64,000 nt of DNA from Nocardioides sp. L-11A (GTDB lineage Bacteria; Actinomycetota; Actinomycetes; Propionibacteriales; Nocardioidaceae), in contig CP124680.1 of the NCBI GenBank assembly GCA_029961745.1, forward strand, positions 806,001-870,000. Reading direction: 5' to 3'. Positions within the stretch are counted from its first letter, which is position 1. Each line of letters begins with the position of its first letter. Below the pieces are notes generated by a model. The model did no database searches. It was not told the DNA's origin and saw only the letters and a list, made by a program, of their open reading frames with translations. Shown in pieces: positions 1 through 39,807 of this stretch. Made by a program: the position numbers and the translations under genes.

Positions 1-520
1 GCGACTGCGCGAGGTGCTCGAGGGTGCCCTTGGAGAGCTTGTAGCCGGAGTACTCGGGCTGGCTGCTGTAGATGACGCAGGAGTTGACCATGATCACCGA
101 GCCGCCGATCTTGTCCTCGCTCTGCGCGAGGGCGTCGGCGAACAGGGCGGACAGCCGCAGCGGCGCGAACACATTGGTCTCGTTGGCGGTGCGCAGGCCG
201 TCGAGGTCGAGCGTGCTGATCGGGTCCATCGGCGGGATGCCGAAGGCGTTGTTGATCAGGCAGTCGACCTTCCCGAACTCGTCGAGCGCCGCCTCGACCA
301 GCGCCTTGCGCTGGTCCTCGTCGGTGATGTCGGTCGGTACGACGAGCGCCCGGCGCCCGTACGACCGGACCACCTCGGCCATCTTCTCCAGCCGCTTCGG
401 GGTCCGGCTCACCAGGACGAGGTCGGCGCCCATCTTGGCCGCCTCCTCGCCGAGGGAGCGTCCGAGGCCCGGCCCGACGCCGGAGAGCACGACGACCTTG
501 TCGGTCAGCAGATCCACCAT
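1..520 (-). CDS. SDR family oxidoreductase (3' end outside window)
   Basis: NAD(P)-dependent short-chain dehydrogenase/reductase; 173 residues are visible and the C-terminus runs off the left edge. The ATG at 520 gives MVDLLTDKVVVLSG, then the Rossmann glycine motif SGVGPGLG, NNAFG in place of the usual NNAG, the catalytic Ser in MVNSCV and the Tyr/Lys pair in GYKLSK (YxxxK). A KstR-type operator lies 12 bases upstream, so a role in steroid side-chain or ring oxidation or reduction is likely by context; the substrate cannot be read from the sequence. The family call is firm, the pathway is inference. Confidence 0.9.
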   Translation of the reverse strand, partial: MVDLLTDKVVVLSGVGPGLGRSLGEEAAKMGADLVLVSRTPKRLEKMAEVVRSYGRRALVVPTDITDEDQRKALVEAALDEFGKVDCLINNAFGIPPMDPISTLDLDGLRTANETNVFAPLRLSALFADALAQSEDKIGGSVIMVNSCVIYSSQPEYSGYKLSKGTLEHLAQS

Positions 521-531
521 GGCGCACAGAG

Positions 532-545
532 TAGAACGTGTTTCA
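532..545. promoter_or_regulatory. KstR-type operator (site 1)
   Basis: TAGAACGTGTTTCA fits the TnnAACnnGTTnnA consensus known for KstR, the TetR-family repressor of cholesterol catabolism in mycobacteria and rhodococci. It sits 12 bases upstream of the SDR start at 520 and 76 bases from the divergent aldo/keto reductase start, so it could control either or both. The right half-site is imperfect (TTTCA rather than TTCTA). Confidence 0.65.
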
Positions 546-621
546 GTTTTCGGGAAGGGGTTCCTGCTGCCGCCGTGGCCGACCGGCGGAATAGTCGCGG
601 ACGGGAGTCGTTGGAACGGAG

Positions 622-1470
622 GTGAGCACTCCGCGGATCGACCTCAACGACCAGACCTCCATCCCCCAGTTCGGCGTCGGCGTGTGGCAGGTGCCGCCGG
701 GGGACGCGGAGCGCGTGGTGTCCGACGCCCTCGAGCTCGGCTACCGCCACGTCGACACCGCCCAGATGTACGGCAACGAGGAGGGTGTCGGCGCCGCCAT
801 CGCACGGTCCGGCCTCGCCCGCGAGGACCTCTACGTCACCACCAAGCTCAACAACAACCGCCACGAGCCGGGCGCGGCCAAGGACTCGCTCCGGGTCTCC
901 CTCGAGAAGCTCGGTCTGGAGAAGGTCGACCTGTTCCTCATCCACTGGCCGCTGCCCACGCGGTACGACGGCGACTTCGTCTCCACCTGGGAGGCGCTGC
1001 TCGAGCTGCGCGAGGCCGGCCTGACCACCTCGGTCGGCGTCTCCAACTTCCAGCCCGGCCACCTCGATCGCATCGTCGAGGCCACCGGCGTCGTCCCGGC
1101 CGTCAACCAGGTCGAGGCGCATCCCTACTTCGCCAACGACGCGGTCCGCGCGGCGACCACGGGCCACGGCGCCCACGTCCAGGCCTGGTCCCCGCTCGGT
1201 CAGGGCGGCGGCGAGCTGAACGACCCGGCGGTGACGGCGCTGGCCGAGCGGTACGCCAAGACGCCCGCCCAGGTGCTGCTGCGCTGGGCGCTGGACCGCG
1301 GCGACATCGTCTTCCCGAAGTCGCTGAGCAGGGCCCGGCTGGCGGAGAACGCCGAGATCTTCGACTTCGCGCTCACCGCCGACGAGGTGGCCGCCCTCGC
1401 CGGGCTCGACAAGGGCGAGGCGGGCCGTCAGGGCCCCAACCCGGACACCTTCGACTGGATCCCCGACTGA
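622..1470 (+). CDS. Aldo/keto reductase
   Basis: NADPH-dependent aldo/keto reductase of 282 residues, a full-length TIM-barrel family member close to 2,5-didehydrogluconate/xylose-type reductases. The catalytic tetrad is visible as Asp45, Tyr50 (HVDTAQMYGNE), Lys75 (TTKLN) and His108 (LIHWP). SVGVSNF and the late FPKS cofactor motif are present. The GTG start lies just behind a GGAACGGAGG stretch. It is divergent from the SDR across a KstR-type box, so a carbonyl (possibly 3-keto or 17-keto steroid) substrate is conceivable; general aldehyde reduction is equally possible. Confidence 0.93.
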   Translation: MSTPRIDLNDQTSIPQFGVGVWQVPPGDAERVVSDALELGYRHVDTAQMYGNEEGVGAAIARSGLAREDLYVTTKLNNNRHEPGAAKDSLRVSLEKLGLEKVDLFLIHWPLPTRYDGDFVSTWEALLELREAGLTTSVGVSNFQPGHLDRIVEATGVVPAVNQVEAHPYFANDAVRAATTGHGAHVQAWSPLGQGGGELNDPAVTALAERYAKTPAQVLLRWALDRGDIVFPKSLSRARLAENAEIFDFALTADEVAALAGLDKGEAGRQGPNPDTFDWIPD

Positions 1471-1507
1471 TCCCCACCTGGGCCCCGCCGGATCCCCCCA
1501 CCGCCCG

Positions 1508-1580
1508 CCGGGCGTCATACCCGGCATTCGAGTCGTCAGAGCCTCCCAATGACGACCCGAATGCCGGGTACGACGCCCGG
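1508..1580. terminator. Bidirectional hairpin between convergent genes
   Basis: A long inverted repeat has arms at 1508-1538 and 1550-1580, beginning CCGGGCGTCATACCCGG and ending CCGGGTACGACGCCCGG, with an 11-base loop and a few mismatches. It lies in the 124-base gap between the ends of two convergent genes, which fits a shared terminator. No U-tract is seen, as is common in high-GC actinobacteria. Confidence 0.7.
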
Positions 1581-1594
1581 TGGGTGCCGCCGCG

Positions 1595-2755
1595 CTACGA
1601 GATCATCCGGCGCGCGACGGCCCGCTGCCGGGCGGTGATCCGGGCGGCGTACTCCTCGACCGACAGTGCGGCCAGGCCGGGCAGGTGCTTCGGGACCTCG
1701 GCCACCGGCACGATCTCGACGCTCGGTCCGTCGGAGGCCGCGAGGGAGCGGGTGAGCTGCTGCCAGCGGAGCATGATCGGGCCGGTGCGATGGCCGGTGG
1801 TCTCCAGCCAGTTGGCGACCGGGGCGCCGTCGGGCCCGGGTGGGCGCTCGGAGATGACGAACCGCATCACGCCGTCGTCGTCGGTGACGGCCTGGGCCTT
1901 GGTCAGCGAGGTCTGGTGCGTCTCGTAGTCGGTCGAGACATACCAGTCCGACCCGATCTGGATCGCCTGGTAGGTGCAGTCGTCGCAGCGGGGGACGGAC
2001 ACGATCATCGCCTCGTCCTCGGCCAGCCCGTAGTGGCCGATCGAGGAGAACTGCGACGACAAGCCGCCCGGCGTCGGAGCGGGGACGGTCAACGTGTTGA
2101 CCGGCTCCTTGTACTGGAAGAAGTGGGGGAAGGCGAACCAGGTCTGGATCGAGCCGATCAGCGAGCGCGCCGCGATCTCGTACTGCCGGCGCAGCAGGTC
2201 CGCGGTCGGCTCCCGGCGCGGCCGGCCGAGGGTGTCGGGGCGCTCGATGGTGAGCGTGCCGCGCTCCTCGGTGTCCCAGTCGTTGAAGACCTCGCGCACG
2301 ATCAGCGTCTTCGCGCCCTGCTCGGCGACGTAGGTGAACTCGAAGGAGCCGTCCGGCCCGATCTCCAGCTCGCGCTCGTCGAAGGCCATCATCGAGGTGG
2401 CGGCCGAGTCGGCGCTGTAGGCGCCGCCCATCACCTGGAAGGACAGGTCGGCCGAGGTCCCCCGCCGGCCGCGCACGACGTACTCGACGCCCTCGCGCAG
2501 GTAGGCGTTGAAGTAGATCGCGTCCGGATTGTCCAGGCCCTGCCGGGAGAACTGGTGGGTCGGGTTGATGAACAGCGGCTGCTCGAGGTCGTAGTCGAAG
2601 GCCGTCTGCATCGCCATCCGGATCCGTCCGGCGAGGTACTCGTAGCCCTCGATCCGGTCGGCCTCGCTGTCGATGAACGGCGCGTTCGCGATCAGCTCCT
2701 CGGCCTCGGCGATCGCGTCCCGCAGCGGCTGGGTCAGGTCGAGGGAGGCGGACAT
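1595..2755 (-). CDS. Conserved protein, DUF1214-like C-terminus
   Basis: 386 residues, no signal peptide or membrane segment. The N-terminal half resembles no enzyme I can name. The C-terminal part (GSDWYVSTDYETHQ, then FVISE and ANWLETTGHRTGPIMLRW) has the look of DUF1214 proteins, which end in an NWL-containing beta-rich stretch. A possible metal site CDDC lies mid-protein. The ATG overlaps the stop of the upstream oxidoreductase by one base (TGATG), so the two are translationally coupled and share the KstR-type promoter. A role in steroid or related lipid metabolism is inferred only from context. Confidence 0.75.
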   Translation of the reverse strand: MSASLDLTQPLRDAIAEAEELIANAPFIDSEADRIEGYEYLAGRIRMAMQTAFDYDLEQPLFINPTHQFSRQGLDNPDAIYFNAYLREGVEYVVRGRRGTSADLSFQVMGGAYSADSAATSMMAFDERELEIGPDGSFEFTYVAEQGAKTLIVREVFNDWDTEERGTLTIERPDTLGRPRREPTADLLRRQYEIAARSLIGSIQTWFAFPHFFQYKEPVNTLTVPAPTPGGLSSQFSSIGHYGLAEDEAMIVSVPRCDDCTYQAIQIGSDWYVSTDYETHQTSLTKAQAVTDDDGVMRFVISERPPGPDGAPVANWLETTGHRTGPIMLRWQQLTRSLAASDGPSVEIVPVAEVPKHLPGLAALSVEEYAARITARQRAVARRMIS

Positions 2756-3645
2756 CAGCCGTTCACCTTCGCGATGACGTTCTCGGCGTACTGCTCGAGG
2801 TGCTTGATCTTCGTCTCCAGCGGCTCGGTGTCGGGCCCCTTGATGTAGGGGACCCGGAAGCCGACGATGCAGTCGGTGACCCCCCTGTCCTCGAGCCGCT
2901 TGACGCCGTCGACGGTGTAGGCGTCGTAGGAGATCACGTGCACCTCGAAGTCGTCGCGGGTGTCGCCCTCCTCGGCTCGGATCTCGGCGAGCCGGGTCAG
3001 CAGCCGGTCGAGCTCCTCGCCGTCGCCGCCGGCGTGCATCCACCCGTCGCCCTTGCGTACGGCGCGCCGCAGCGCCGCGTCGGAGTGCCCGCCGACGAGC
3101 AGCGGGATCCGCTCGGTCGGGGCGGGGCACTGCTGGAGCGGCTCGATGTCGTAGAACTCGCCCTGGTAGCCGAAGAACGTCGGCTCGTCGCCGGGCTGGG
3201 TGAGCCCGCGCAGGATGTCCATGCACTCGTCCATCCGCTTGCCGCGCCTCTCCCACGGCACGCCCATGGCCGCGAAGTCCTCGGGCCACGGGGAGAGCCC
3301 CACGCCGAGGCCGAGCCGGTTGCCGGACAGGAACGCCAGCGACGACGCCTGCTTGGCGACGAGCACGGGCGGCCGGATCGGCAGCTTGAGCACGAACGGC
3401 GTGAGCCGCAGGCTGCTGGTCACGGCGAAGAGGTGGCTGCACAGGATGAACGTCTCGATGAACTGCTTGCCGAGGAGGAACTCGCGGTCACCGGTGTCGG
3501 TGTAGGGGTACTTCGAGTCGGACTCCTGCGGGTAGATCAGGCTGTCCGCGATGGTCATCGACGTGTAGCCAGTCGCCTCGCAGGCCTGGGCGAGCGGGGC
3601 GTAGTAGTCGGCGTGGGTCATGCCCTCGGCGAAGGAGAAGCGCAT
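2755..3645 (-). CDS. LLM-class F420-dependent oxidoreductase
   Basis: 296-residue luciferase-like monooxygenase-fold protein expected to use reduced coenzyme F420. Visible features are the N-terminal MRFSFAEGMTHADYY strand-helix, an LPIRPPVLVAKQASSLAFLS segment, the RLGLGVGLSPWPEDFAAMG loop and PLLVGGHSDAALRRA, all typical of this family. The ATG is 10 bases from a perfect KstR-type palindrome. F420-dependent LLM proteins occur in mycobacterial KstR regulons (Rv3520c is one), which supports a steroid role. It is the first gene of a two-gene operon with the DUF1214-like protein. Confidence 0.9.
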   Translation of the reverse strand: MRFSFAEGMTHADYYAPLAQACEATGYTSMTIADSLIYPQESDSKYPYTDTGDREFLLGKQFIETFILCSHLFAVTSSLRLTPFVLKLPIRPPVLVAKQASSLAFLSGNRLGLGVGLSPWPEDFAAMGVPWERRGKRMDECMDILRGLTQPGDEPTFFGYQGEFYDIEPLQQCPAPTERIPLLVGGHSDAALRRAVRKGDGWMHAGGDGEELDRLLTRLAEIRAEEGDTRDDFEVHVISYDAYTVDGVKRLEDRGVTDCIVGFRVPYIKGPDTEPLETKIKHLEQYAENVIAKVNG

Positions 3646-3655
3646 CCCGCAACAC

Positions 3656-3669
3656 TAGAACCTGTTCTA
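3656..3669. promoter_or_regulatory. KstR-type operator (site 2), perfect palindrome
   Basis: TAGAACCTGTTCTA has perfect TAGAAC/GTTCTA half-sites around a two-base centre and matches TnnAACnnGTTnnA at every fixed position. It lies between divergent starts at 3645 and 3683, 10 and 13 bases away, so one repressor dimer could shut both operons. Confidence 0.8.
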
Positions 3670-3682
3670 CATTTCTGCCAGA

Positions 3683-4177
3683 GTGAGTTCCATGGCAGCG
3701 ACCAAGCCGAAGCCCGACGGCCTCGACAAGCCGATCGTCGCGAAGATCATCAAGTACGGCGCCAAGGCCAATGTGCGGATCTACCGGCTCACCAATGGCC
3801 GCATCGGCGCGAAGTGGCGCATCGGCGCGGGCTGGCGGAAGCCGGTCCCGGTGCTGCTGCTCGACCACGTCGGGCGCAAGAGCGGTGCGCGCTTCACCAC
3901 GCCGCTGCTCTACCTCGCCGACGGGCCGGACCTGGTCGTCGTCGGCTCCCAGGGCGGGCTGCCGAAGAACCCCCAGTGGTTCCACAACCTGGTCGCGAAC
4001 CCGGACGCCACGGTCGCCGTACCGGGGGAGCGGAGCCGGGCGGTCCGGGCCCGGGTCGCCGGTGCCGAGGAGCGCGCCGCCCTGTGGCCGCGCCTGGTCG
4101 ACCTCTACGCCGACTTCGACAACTACCAGGCCTGGACCGACCGGGAGATCCCGGTCGTCGTCCTCGAGCCGCGCTGA
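3683..4177 (+). CDS. Ddn-type F420-binding nitroreductase-family protein
   Basis: 164-residue split-beta-barrel protein of the deazaflavin-dependent nitroreductase (Ddn/FDOR) family. The hallmark run is present: PVLLLDHVGRKSGARFTTPL, then VVVGSQGG, PQWFHNLVANPDATV and a C-terminal FDNYQAWTDREIPVVVLEPR. Such proteins bind F420 and reduce quinones, nitroaromatics or enones. GTG 3683 or ATG 3692 could start it; GTG is kept. Opposite an F420-dependent LLM across one KstR-type operator, it suggests two F420 steps under the same signal. Confidence 0.92.
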   Translation: MSSMAATKPKPDGLDKPIVAKIIKYGAKANVRIYRLTNGRIGAKWRIGAGWRKPVPVLLLDHVGRKSGARFTTPLLYLADGPDLVVVGSQGGLPKNPQWFHNLVANPDATVAVPGERSRAVRARVAGAEERAALWPRLVDLYADFDNYQAWTDREIPVVVLEPR

Positions 4178-4202
4178 CCCCGACCCGACCGAGGAGCCCA
4201 CC

Positions 4203-4634
4203 GTGGACCTGCAGGAGCTGATCGACCGCGCCGAGATCACCGACGCGATCACCCGCTACACCCTCGCCGTCGACGACGGCGACTTCGACGCCCTCGACAC
4301 CGTGTTCACGCCCGACGCCCACATCGACTACACCGAGAGCGGGGGCGTCGTCGACAGCTACCCGGTCGTCAAGGCGTGGCTCGCCGAGGCGCTGCCCGGC
4401 TTCTCGCAGCACCGCGTGCACCTGGTCGGGCAGGTCGCCGTCGACTTCGCCGGCACCCGCGACGAGGCCGACGTGACCGCCTACTTCCACAACCCCATGC
4501 GGATCGCGGACGGCAGGGGCGGGGAGCGGGTCGTCGAGGTCGGTGGCCGCTACCGGCACACGTTCGTGCGTACGACGGACGGCTGGCGCTCGCGCCGGCT
4601 GCACGAGCAGGTGGTCTGGACGCGCGGGTTCTGA
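4203..4634 (+). CDS. SnoaL-like (NTF2-fold) protein
   Basis: 143-residue cone-shaped NTF2-like protein of the SnoaL_4 type: LIDRAEITDAITRYTLAVDDGD and FTPDAHIDYTESGG match the helical start and first strand, with the closing TDGWRSRRLHEQVVW. Members include ketosteroid isomerases, dehydratases and ring hydroxylase small subunits. GTG start behind GAGGAG, 25 bases after the Ddn-type gene, so probably the same KstR-controlled operon. A steroid isomerase, hydratase or non-enzymatic binding role is possible; I cannot choose between them. Confidence 0.85.
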   Translation: MDLQELIDRAEITDAITRYTLAVDDGDFDALDTVFTPDAHIDYTESGGVVDSYPVVKAWLAEALPGFSQHRVHLVGQVAVDFAGTRDEADVTAYFHNPMRIADGRGGERVVEVGGRYRHTFVRTTDGWRSRRLHEQVVWTRGF

Positions 4635-39385: not shown

Positions 39386-39760
39386 TCAGCTGACGACCAT
39401 GTCCTCGCCGGCCCAGAACGCCCGCATGCTGGTGATCCGGCCCTCGTCGTCGAAGGTCATCACGTCGATCGGCGCGAGCGTGAAGGTCTGGTCGCCGGCC
39501 TTGGTGACCAGTTCGAAGGAGAACGCCGCCTCGTTGCCGGCGACCCGGGCGCAGAGCAGCCGCCCGGTCTGCTCCAAGCCGTCGAGGGCGGCGTAGAACT
39601 CGGCGATCTGCTCGCGGGTGGTGCGCACCTCCGAGCCGACCGGGTCCTCGACGGTGGCGCCGTCGGCGTAGAGCGCGACGACGTCGGCGGAGGCCCCGGT
39701 GGCGACGAGGTCGACGTAGGTCTGGATGGTCTCGAGGATGGTCTCGCGGCTGGCGCCCAT
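39386..39760 (-). CDS. ksi: Steroid Delta5-3-ketosteroid isomerase
   Basis: 124 residues, NTF2 fold. It closely follows the classic Comamonas/Pseudomonas ketosteroid isomerase pattern: IQTYVDLVATG, LYADGATVEDPVGSEVRT, GNEAAFSFEL, APIDVMTFDDEGRITSMRAF. The catalytic residues fall at Tyr15, Asp39 and Asp99 (Tyr14, Asp38, Asp99 in the Comamonas enzyme). It moves the C5-C6 double bond into conjugation, giving 4-ene-3-ketosteroids. ATG start; a KstR-type box lies 33 bases upstream. Confidence 0.92.
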   Translation of the reverse strand: MGASRETILETIQTYVDLVATGASADVVALYADGATVEDPVGSEVRTTREQIAEFYAALDGLEQTGRLLCARVAGNEAAFSFELVTKAGDQTFTLAPIDVMTFDDEGRITSMRAFWAGEDMVVS

Positions 39761-39793
39761 GACGGCTCCTTGGTTCGGTTCGGTCGGATGAAC

Positions 39794-39807
39794 TAGAACG
39801 TGTTCTC
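39794..39807. promoter_or_regulatory. KstR-type operator (site 3)
   Basis: TAGAACGTGTTCTC, preceded by AAC, fits TnnAACnnGTTnnA except for the final base. It sits 33 bases upstream of the ketosteroid isomerase start, tying that gene to the same regulator as the 0.5-4.6 kb cluster. The divergent purA start is 168 bases away. Confidence 0.75.

What the first reader, a model, noticed from the sequence alone, without database searches (positions are those of the whole stretch)
1..4634. Compact KstR-controlled F420/steroid module
Seen: two KstR-type operators (532-545 and 3656-3669), the second a perfect palindrome shared by divergent operons. They flank an SDR, an aldo/keto reductase, a DUF1214-like protein coupled to an F420-dependent LLM enzyme, a Ddn-type F420 protein and a SnoaL-like protein. 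Known: KstR controls cholesterol catabolism, and its mycobacterial regulon includes an F420-dependent LLM enzyme. Inference: a small steroid redox module in which two different F420 enzyme families answer one repressor. I know of no described pathway with this gene set.
Basis: partly seen in the sequence, partly recalled or inferred. Interest (0 to 1): 0.75.

Follow-up and report, generated by a model that had tools for sequence, protein, structure and literature searches.

The report
KstR-controlled steroid operon with sulfotransferase
A soil bacterium related to Pimelobacter simplex carries, under the switch that controls sterol breakdown, a small gene set that joins a predicted F420 enzyme, a protein of unknown function, a dehydrogenase and (just outside the window) a sulfotransferase related to tuberculosis Stf1, which hints that sterol-eating bacteria add sulfate to a steroid or other lipid.

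Summary
In detail: both KstR-type operators are exact, none of 100 shuffles gives two, and the six genes are as described. KstR control is well supported: a kstR gene, 44 exact sites against 7 for the control pattern, and an operator upstream of the LLM gene in 76 of 80 relatives. But the window edge cuts the module. The SDR is followed by a sulfotransferase whose best solved relative is M. tuberculosis Stf1. DUF1214-like, SDR and sulfotransferase form an operon in 18 of 18 loci read outside the genus, 15 with an exact KstR site, in the order of Rv3531c-Rv3530c-Rv3529c, whose promoter binds KstR (PMC1995591). Nocardioides adds the LLM in front and SnoaL/Ddn divergently; the aldo/keto reductase is an insertion. 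New here: in some other actinobacteria cysD-cysNC (PAPS synthesis) lies beside this operon (7 of 66 cysD matches within 5 kb), and in 5 of 8 such loci cysD has a KstR-like site. Best reading: a KstR-switched module that tailors and sulfonates a steroid. Substrate, F420 use and sulfonation are untested.

The parts
532..545 (.). KstR-type operator 1, TAGAACGTGTTTCA, between the SDR (minus, start 520) and the AKR (plus, start 622)
   Evidence: exact match; an exact site precedes the SDR in 26 of 26 relatives in which SDR is more than 250 bp from the 386-aa gene, against 6 of 42 in which it is close
3656..3669 (.). KstR-type operator 2, TAGAACCTGTTCTA, shared by LLM (minus) and Ddn-SnoaL (plus)
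   Evidence: exact match; exact site within 80 bp upstream of the LLM start in 76 of 80 relatives, 39 of them at -24; the reversed pattern within 200 bp in 0 of 80
2..520 (-). SDR, first 173 residues; the complete 264-aa gene runs left of the window (G000:C1:805726-806520). It overlaps the sulfotransferase gene G000:C1:804576-805733, which lies outside the window
   Evidence: NF005909 364.6 bits, above cut-off; sulfotransferase PF13469 1.2e-54
1595..2755 (-). 386-aa DUF1214-like protein
   Evidence: Pfam DUF1214 sub-threshold 0.0068; 6ans 2.6e-37 by sequence and TM 0.75 by predicted fold
2755..3645 (-). LLM-class oxidoreductase, TIGR03619 subfamily (predicted F420-dependent); first gene of the operon, overlapping the 386-aa gene by one base
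   Evidence: 174.7 bits, cut-off 166.9; PF00296 1.1e-38
3692..4177 (+). Ddn-type F420H2-dependent reductase, PF04075
   Evidence: PDB Ddn 3r5l 8e-28; within 1200 bp, divergent from LLM, in 50 of 80 relatives
4203..4634 (+). SnoaL_4 protein (possible dehydratase or isomerase)
   Evidence: PF13577 6.1e-28; within 1200 bp, divergent from LLM, in 77 of 80 relatives
622..1470 (+). Aldo/keto reductase, DkgA-like; neighbour, not part of the conserved module
   Evidence: between the 386-aa gene and SDR in 15 of 68 relatives
1502..1586 (.). Long stem-loop between the convergent AKR and 386-aa genes; terminator-like
   Evidence: fold of 1495-1592: -72.7 kcal/mol, z -10.45, 0 of 200 shuffles
39386..39760 (-). 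Ketosteroid isomerase-type protein elsewhere in the window, with a one-mismatch KstR-like site at 39794-39807 upstream
   Evidence: best PDB match 6p3l, SnoaL-like, 5.8e-24; first named one steroid delta-isomerase 1ocv 1.3e-17; no NCBIfam match at 1e-10; site

Best explanation
This is the Nocardioides form of a KstR-repressed operon of sterol-degrading actinobacteria. KstR sits on both operators; when sterols are eaten, a sterol acid or its CoA ester releases it (known for KstR in other bacteria, from papers cited below). The unit LLM, DUF1214-like protein, SDR and Stf1-type sulfotransferase is then made, together with Ddn and SnoaL from the other strand. Shown here: the operators, the kstR gene, the gene families, the conserved order, the PAPS-site motifs in the sulfotransferase, and the repeated linkage of PAPS-synthesis genes (cysD-cysNC), often with KstR-like sites of their own, to the same operon in other genera. 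Inferred: binding by KstR; the LLM (and Ddn) reduce a steroid enone or ketone with F420H2, the SDR sets an alcohol, and the sulfotransferase puts sulfate on it, to make the intermediate soluble or safe or to turn a hydroxyl into a leaving group; SnoaL would dehydrate or isomerise. The role of the DUF1214-like protein is open.
For: KstR: TetR gene at G000:C1:3148476-3149087 with its own site; best PDB match M. tuberculosis KstR 2.1e-56, next different protein 2.6e-21; NF033703 263.7 bits. Regulon: 44 exact sites in the genome, control pattern 7, in front of a steroid thiolase (NF005889), EchA19, HsaA and a TIGR03559 (Rv3520c-type) LLM, all above cut-off.

Operator at LLM: 76 of 80 relatives; 12 of 17 LLM loci outside the family have an exact site. 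Split test: 26 of 26 against 6 of 42, Fisher 2e-13.

Operon: sulfotransferase follows SDR in 61 of 61 with room; 386-aa gene + SDR + sulfotransferase in 18 of 18 loci read outside the genus, 15 of 18 with an exact site.

Stf1: 2zq5 1.4e-132 for the own protein; top by fold for a 93.8% identical relative, title STF1 of M. tuberculosis, 52% identity; PAPS-motif residues invariant in 57 of 57.

Co-occurrence in 394 genomes: 48 with the 386-aa gene, 49 with a strong KstR, 44 with both. PAPS genes: 7 of 66 cysD matches within 5 kb, 0.15 expected; KstR-like site within about 60 bp of cysD in 5 of 8. F420 synthesis: two cofH/fbiC-type genes.
Against: No substrate, product, binding or expression datum. 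F420 use rests on family models only. KstR of this genome is below the NCBIfam cut-off (263.7 against 280). Some loci lack an exact operator: 4 of 80 and 5 of 17 at the LLM, 3 of 18 at the 386-aa gene. cysD linkage is the exception: 42 of the 48 genomes show none within 5 kb. In the own genome cysD lies 0.2 Mb away without a KstR site; it is also absent beside the operon in the two genus-g10 regions, three f18 regions, one f46 region and one g83 region read. Two linked loci, L191 and L192, have cysD-cysNC and the 386-aa gene but no KstR site, so the cassette can serve another substrate. In print, Rv3529c is discussed as acting on host signalling (passage in PMC8882603), not on steroids. Orthology to Rv3531c and Rv3530c was inferred from order and promoter, not from sequence.
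Confidence: 0.55

Rival explanations
1. One reading: a small F420-dependent steroid redox module (LLM plus Ddn), with the other genes as helpers and no sulfonation step.
For: LLM and Ddn-type families share one operator; the SnoaL-LLM pair occurs without the 386-aa gene, SDR or sulfotransferase within the 5 kb held in 3 Aeromicrobium relatives (L053, L058, L072), and LLM homologues with an exact site (12 of 17) occur away from them in other families.
Against: Ddn is not beside the LLM in 30 of 80 loci (some loci end early). The LLM is tied to a Stf1-type sulfotransferase operon in Nocardioides, and a paralogous cassette in L192 holds LLM, sulfotransferase, SDR, 386-aa gene and cysD-cysNC together.
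Confidence: 0.2
2. KstR-controlled but not for the steroid itself: the sulfotransferase sulfonates a cell lipid or quinone made during sterol growth, and SDR, LLM and the DUF1214-like protein prepare that lipid.
For: Kendall et al. argue that the regulon may serve diverse lipids (PMC1995591, abstract and passages). Copies of the cassette without KstR sites exist.
Against: Strong co-occurrence with KstR in 394 genomes; [quoted passage not shown]
Confidence: 0.2
3. The sites belong to another TetR-type repressor with a KstR-like motif, and the genes are unrelated to sterols.
For: The own KstR is below the NCBIfam cut-off; other TetR genes are present, for example beside the site at G000:C1:4291886.
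Against: The same motif precedes kstR itself, HsaA, EchA19 and a steroid thiolase; KstR binds the Rv3531c/Rv3532 promoter in vitro (PMC1995591, Table 3).
Confidence: 0.05

Closest known systems
KstR regulon operon Rv3531c-Rv3530c-Rv3529c (Stf1) of M. tuberculosis
   Same: 386-aa gene, SDR and Stf1-type sulfotransferase in the same order, KstR site upstream; best solved relative of the sulfotransferase is STF1; KstR binding at Rv3531c/Rv3532 is published (PMC1995591)
   Different: Here an LLM gene is the first gene, SnoaL and Ddn lie divergently, and in this clade an AKR has split off SDR-sulfotransferase, which has its own operator. Rv3531c and Rv3530c were not compared by sequence
F420-type LLM genes of the mycobacterial KstR regulon (Rv3520c; Rv0940c and Rv0953c recalled as LLM)
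   Same: LLM enzymes at KstR sites; in the own genome 3 LLM genes have exact sites upstream, among 34 of the 35 PF00296 matches (one short match was left out)
   Different: The window LLM is TIGR03619, not the TIGR03559 of Rv3520c; that type sits separately at G000:C1:2774665
Ddn (Rv3547), deazaflavin-dependent nitroreductase
   Same: PF04075, best PDB matches are Ddn (8e-28)
   Different: Two of three PF04075 genes of the genome have no exact KstR site near; substrate unknown
VPA0735, VPA0106 and 6ans (DUF1214-type folds, recalled for the first two)
   Same: predicted fold of the 386-aa protein
   Different: 9-13% identity to the Vibrio proteins, 28-29% to 6ans; no known reaction to transfer
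Predicted KstR regulon of Nocardioides simplex VKM Ac-2033D (71 operons)
   Same: near relative, same motif and pathway genes (PMC7807495, sections read)
   Different: The main texts of both N. simplex papers hold no word F420, luciferase, LLM, SnoaL or sulfotransferase; the supplementary tables could not be opened, so these operons may be listed there

Membership tests
KstR regulon | TNNAACNNGTTNNA operator near the gene start, above chance | tested here: met
   44 genome sites against 7 for the control pattern
KstR regulon | kstR orthologue in the genome | tested here: met
   note 263.7 bits is below the NCBIfam cut-off of 280, as are the other KstR hits of its genus
KstR regulon | KstR binding and derepression on sterol | not testable with these tools
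Rv3531c-Rv3530c-Rv3529c (Stf1) operon | order DUF1214-like, SDR, sulfotransferase behind a KstR site | tested here: met
   in this clade split by the AKR, SDR-sulfotransferase having its own site
Rv3531c-Rv3530c-Rv3529c (Stf1) operon | sulfotransferase orthologous to Stf1 | tested here: met
   2zq5 is the best PDB hit by sequence and, for a 93.8% identical relative, by fold, far ahead of STF9; reciprocal test not done
Rv3531c-Rv3530c-Rv3529c (Stf1) operon | 386-aa protein and SDR orthologous to Rv3531c and Rv3530c | not tested
   those sequences were not at hand; inferred from order and promoter
F420-dependent LLM (TIGR03619) | model score above cut-off | tested here: met
   174.7 against 166.9 bits
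F420-dependent LLM (TIGR03619) | uses F420 and not FMN | not testable with these tools
   F420 synthesis present (two cofH/fbiC-type genes), but binding unknown
Ddn / F420H2_quin_red | PF04075 above cut-off | tested here: met
   124.5 against 22 bits; closest to Ddn
DUF1214 | Pfam PF06742 above gathering score | tested here: not met
   17.3 against 25 bits
DUF1214 | DUF1214-type fold | tested here: met
   VPA0106 and VPA0735 follow 6ans, probability 1.00, TM about 0.42; that these are DUF1214 folds is recalled
PAPS-dependent sulfotransferase | 5'-phosphosulfate loop and 3'-phosphate motif residues kept | tested here: met
   positions 100-107 invariant except 104, R258 and S266 invariant in 57 of 57; the roles of these motifs are recalled
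Steroid sulfotransferase | steroid as acceptor | not testable with these tools
   no substrate data

The most novel reading that the evidence does not exclude
Sterol-degrading actinobacteria have a dedicated steroid sulfonation route switched by KstR, with its own PAPS supply in some genera: an F420H2-dependent LLM and an SDR convert a steroid enone or ketone into an alcohol, and the Stf1-type enzyme sulfonates it. In its boldest form the sulfate is not a tag but a leaving group, so that sulfonation followed by elimination (helped by SnoaL) removes a hydroxyl during sterol breakdown. M. tuberculosis Stf1 would then be a cholesterol-pathway enzyme.
Probability: 0.35. Interest if true: 0.75.

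Novelty: new variant of a known kind. Interest (0 to 1): 0.5.

Why it matters
The operon Rv3531c-Rv3529c is an unexplained part of a well-studied regulon: bound by KstR in vitro (PMC1995591), with Rv3531c listed as predicted to be needed for growth on cholesterol (PMC6429209), but given no reaction in the papers read. The Nocardioides version and the cysD-cysNC linkage turn it into a testable claim, PAPS-dependent sulfonation of a steroid or related lipid, which can be asked in soil bacteria. If true it adds a conjugation step to a pathway usually drawn as oxidation, and offers enzymes for making steroid sulfates.

Tried and rejected
AKR as a member of the module: rejected. It lies between the 386-aa gene and the SDR in only 15 of 68 relatives, is convergent to the 386-aa gene and has a strong stem-loop between. 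Other AKR hits (56-65% identity, other side of the LLM) look like paralogues and were not counted as synteny.

LLM as the Rv3520c orthologue: rejected. Rv3520c-type is TIGR03559; that gene is elsewhere in the genome with its own KstR site. Whether Rv0940c or Rv0953c is the true counterpart could not be decided (no sequence at hand).

SnoaL as BaiE-type 7-alpha-dehydratase: not supported. PDB matches are weak and unnamed (best 3b8l, 1.7e-6).

KstR site at cysD of the own genome: none among the 44.

Thresholds (about 240 bits for the 386-aa gene, 255 for KstR, 400 for LLM) were chosen after seeing the score gaps. assumes uniform gene placement and a site rate taken from the same loci; its 52 genes of the 386-aa family are my count.

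The relatives are the 80 best of 145 found. The counts include weak hits, for example SDR in L075 at 29% on the other strand, which one search left out by an identity limit of 60%.

The gene caller was crude: several long ORFs it lists are wrong-strand artefacts, and the ORF L004:4807-5538 behind a perfect site had no Pfam match. The IclR label of the gene beside cysD is by eye.

Expression: of the N. simplex transcriptome papers, PMC7807495 was read in part (section 5 part 1, section 12 parts 1 and 2, section 15, passages) and PMC7593942 in passages only; supplements were not open. Paper searches with sulfotransferase terms (some listings capped, for example 15 of 78 and 10 of 58) listed no paper whose title or shown abstract ties a sulfotransferase to KstR or bacterial cholesterol breakdown; most listed papers were not opened.
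Full report
What is there. The window is G000:C1:806001-870000 of a single-contig 5,684,321-base genome. Its closest named relatives by the LLM protein are Pimelobacter simplex and Nocardioides strains (97-98% identical). The two operators are exact matches to TNNAACNNGTTNNA; two are found where 0.02 are expected. A one-mismatch site at 39794 stands upstream of a ketosteroid isomerase-type gene. The six proteins are SDR, aldo/keto reductase, a 386-aa protein, an LLM enzyme of TIGR03619, a Ddn-type protein and a SnoaL_4 protein. The 386-aa protein has only a sub-threshold DUF1214 hit. A model of mean pLDDT 84 built on 30 sequences matches 6ans (TM 0.75) and then VPA0106 and VPA0735, so DUF1214-like is fair.

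Is it KstR? The genome holds a TetR gene at 3148476-3149087, with its own site at 3148382, that matches M. tuberculosis KstR at 2.1e-56; the next different protein is at 2.6e-21. It scores 263.7 bits against the NCBIfam KstR model, a little below its cut-off of 280; the 13 strongest KstR hits of its genus lie between 258 and 279 bits. The genome has 44 exact sites against 7 for the reversed control pattern. Genes right behind sites include a steroid 3-ketoacyl-CoA thiolase, EchA19, HsaA and a TIGR03559 LLM, all above the curated cut-offs. In the 80 best relatives of 145, an exact site lies within 80 bp upstream of the LLM start in 76; 39 of them begin exactly 24 nt before the start codon; the reversed pattern gives 0 within 200 bp. 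The four misses carry, by eye, a one-mismatch version (sequences printed).

The real unit. Reading past the window edge shows that the SDR gene overlaps a sulfotransferase gene (PF13469). Among 68 relatives with the 386-aa gene and SDR in order, a sulfotransferase follows the SDR in 61 of the 61 loci with enough sequence left. The relatives also provide a natural test. Where SDR is more than 250 bp away from the 386-aa gene, 26 of 26 have an exact KstR site in front of SDR; where it is close, 6 of 42 do (Fisher 2e-13). In 15 of the 26 an aldo/keto reductase like the one here lies between. So SDR-sulfotransferase has kept a KstR site of its own when parted from the LLM operon; the aldo/keto reductase is an insertion, and a stem-loop of -72.7 kcal/mol (z -10.45) stands between it and the 386-aa gene. 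SnoaL lies divergently within 1200 bp of the LLM in 77 of 80, Ddn in 50 of 80.

Beyond Nocardioides. In 394 genomes of the class, 386-aa homologues were found in 68, of which I count 48 as strong. Of the 18 loci read outside the genus (L120-L137), all 18 have SDR and sulfotransferase in order behind the 386-aa gene, none shows the LLM within the flank held (at most 1.5 kb), and 15 have an exact KstR site; of the other three, one has a one-mismatch site (L133) and two have none. Close LLM homologues (66-71% identical) sit elsewhere in those families; of 17 such loci (L152-L168), 12 have an exact site; of the 5 without, 4 have a one-mismatch site near the LLM start and 1 (L161) has none there. 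The 386-aa gene and a strong KstR coincide in 44 genomes, against 4 and 5 with only one of them and 341 with neither; for the LLM the numbers are 43, 5, 6 and 340.

What it matches. The sulfotransferase is closest in the PDB to 2zq5 by sequence (1.4e-132). The model of a 93.8% identical relative (L022) also has 2zq5 on top, 52% identical, titled sulfotransferase STF1 from M. tuberculosis; Rv3529c is Stf1 (passage in PMC8882603). Kendall et al. 2007 (PMC1995591; outline, sections 10 and 16, and passages read) report KstR binding at the Rv3531c/Rv3532 promoter and at Rv3520c/Rv3521, Rv0940c and Rv0953c/Rv0954. [quoted passage not shown] The window module is therefore best seen as this operon with an LLM gene in front. 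That Rv0940c and Rv0953c are LLM genes and that Rv3547 is Ddn is from memory.

The new lead. In a Tsukamurella plasmid the operon lies beside cysD and an adenylyl-sulfate kinase gene, the makers of PAPS. Of 12 further regions fetched, five show the same (L177, L181, L182, L183, L185). A search of the 48 genomes with the 386-aa gene found 66 cysD matches; 7 lie within 5 kb of a 386-aa gene, in 6 genomes, where 0.15 would be expected by uniform placement; the other 42 genomes show no such link. Of the 8 linked loci read (these 7 and the plasmid), 5 also carry a KstR-like site within about 60 bp of the cysD start, one exact and four with one mismatch; in L185, the exact case, two exact sites lie in the short region shared by cysD and the 386-aa gene. 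L182 has cysD-cysNC-386-SDR-sulfotransferase all on one strand without a site, and L191 and L192 have none near these genes. L192 holds a second cassette with LLM (38% identical), sulfotransferase, SDR, 386-aa gene and cysD-cysNC. PAPS supply next to the sulfotransferase argues that the latter really works as one, and its PAPS-motif residues are invariant in 57 of 57 sequences, the own one and 56 relatives.

How it probably works. KstR represses both operators; a sterol acid or its derivative lifts it (PMC7807495, section 12; PMC4881515, passage). The enzymes then act on a steroid: predicted F420H2-dependent reduction by LLM and perhaps Ddn, an SDR step at a keto or hydroxyl group, and sulfate transfer. 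The order and the substrate are inference. Sulfonation could protect or solubilise, or activate a hydroxyl for elimination. Some of the weaker structural neighbours are sulfotransferases that work by elimination (retinol dehydratase, olefin synthase and curacin domains; that they do so is recalled), but these matches are to the fold as a whole and are no evidence for that mechanism.

Limits. No expression data could be read for this strain or for N. simplex beyond main texts (supplements closed); those main texts hold no word F420, luciferase, LLM, SnoaL or sulfotransferase. F420 use is by family model; two cofH/fbiC-type genes show that the genome can probably make F420.

Noticed in passing
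window 39386-39807: Ketosteroid isomerase-type gene with a one-mismatch KstR-like site (TAGAACGTGTTCTC) upstream; a second sterol-type gene in the window, not in the finding.
   Followed up: partly
window 532-545 and 3656-3669: The operators end 10-11 bp before the start codons, and 39 of 80 relatives have the LLM site exactly at -24. As the KstR motif is said to overlap a putative -10 region in mycobacteria (PMC1995591), these mRNAs may be leaderless.
   Followed up: no
G000:C1:225205 (L002:9205): A second TIGR03619-type LLM gene has an exact KstR-type site that begins 36 bp before its called start; with the TIGR03559 LLM at 2774665 the genome has three LLM genes at exact KstR sites.
   Followed up: partly
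L191 (G303) and L192 (G107): Second copies of the cassette (386-aa gene, sulfotransferase, cysD-cysNC and an SDR, in L191 the SDR before cysD; in L192 also an LLM) without KstR sites near, possibly serving another substrate under another regulator.
   Followed up: partly
L177, L181, L183, L138 between cysD and the 386-aa gene; L176:3956-4903: An IclR-looking regulator gene (by eye) lies beside the operon in two families.
   Followed up: no
G000:C1:386380 and 4276844: Two FbiC/CofH-type genes above cut-off, in open frames of 896 and 880 residues, in one genome.
   Followed up: no
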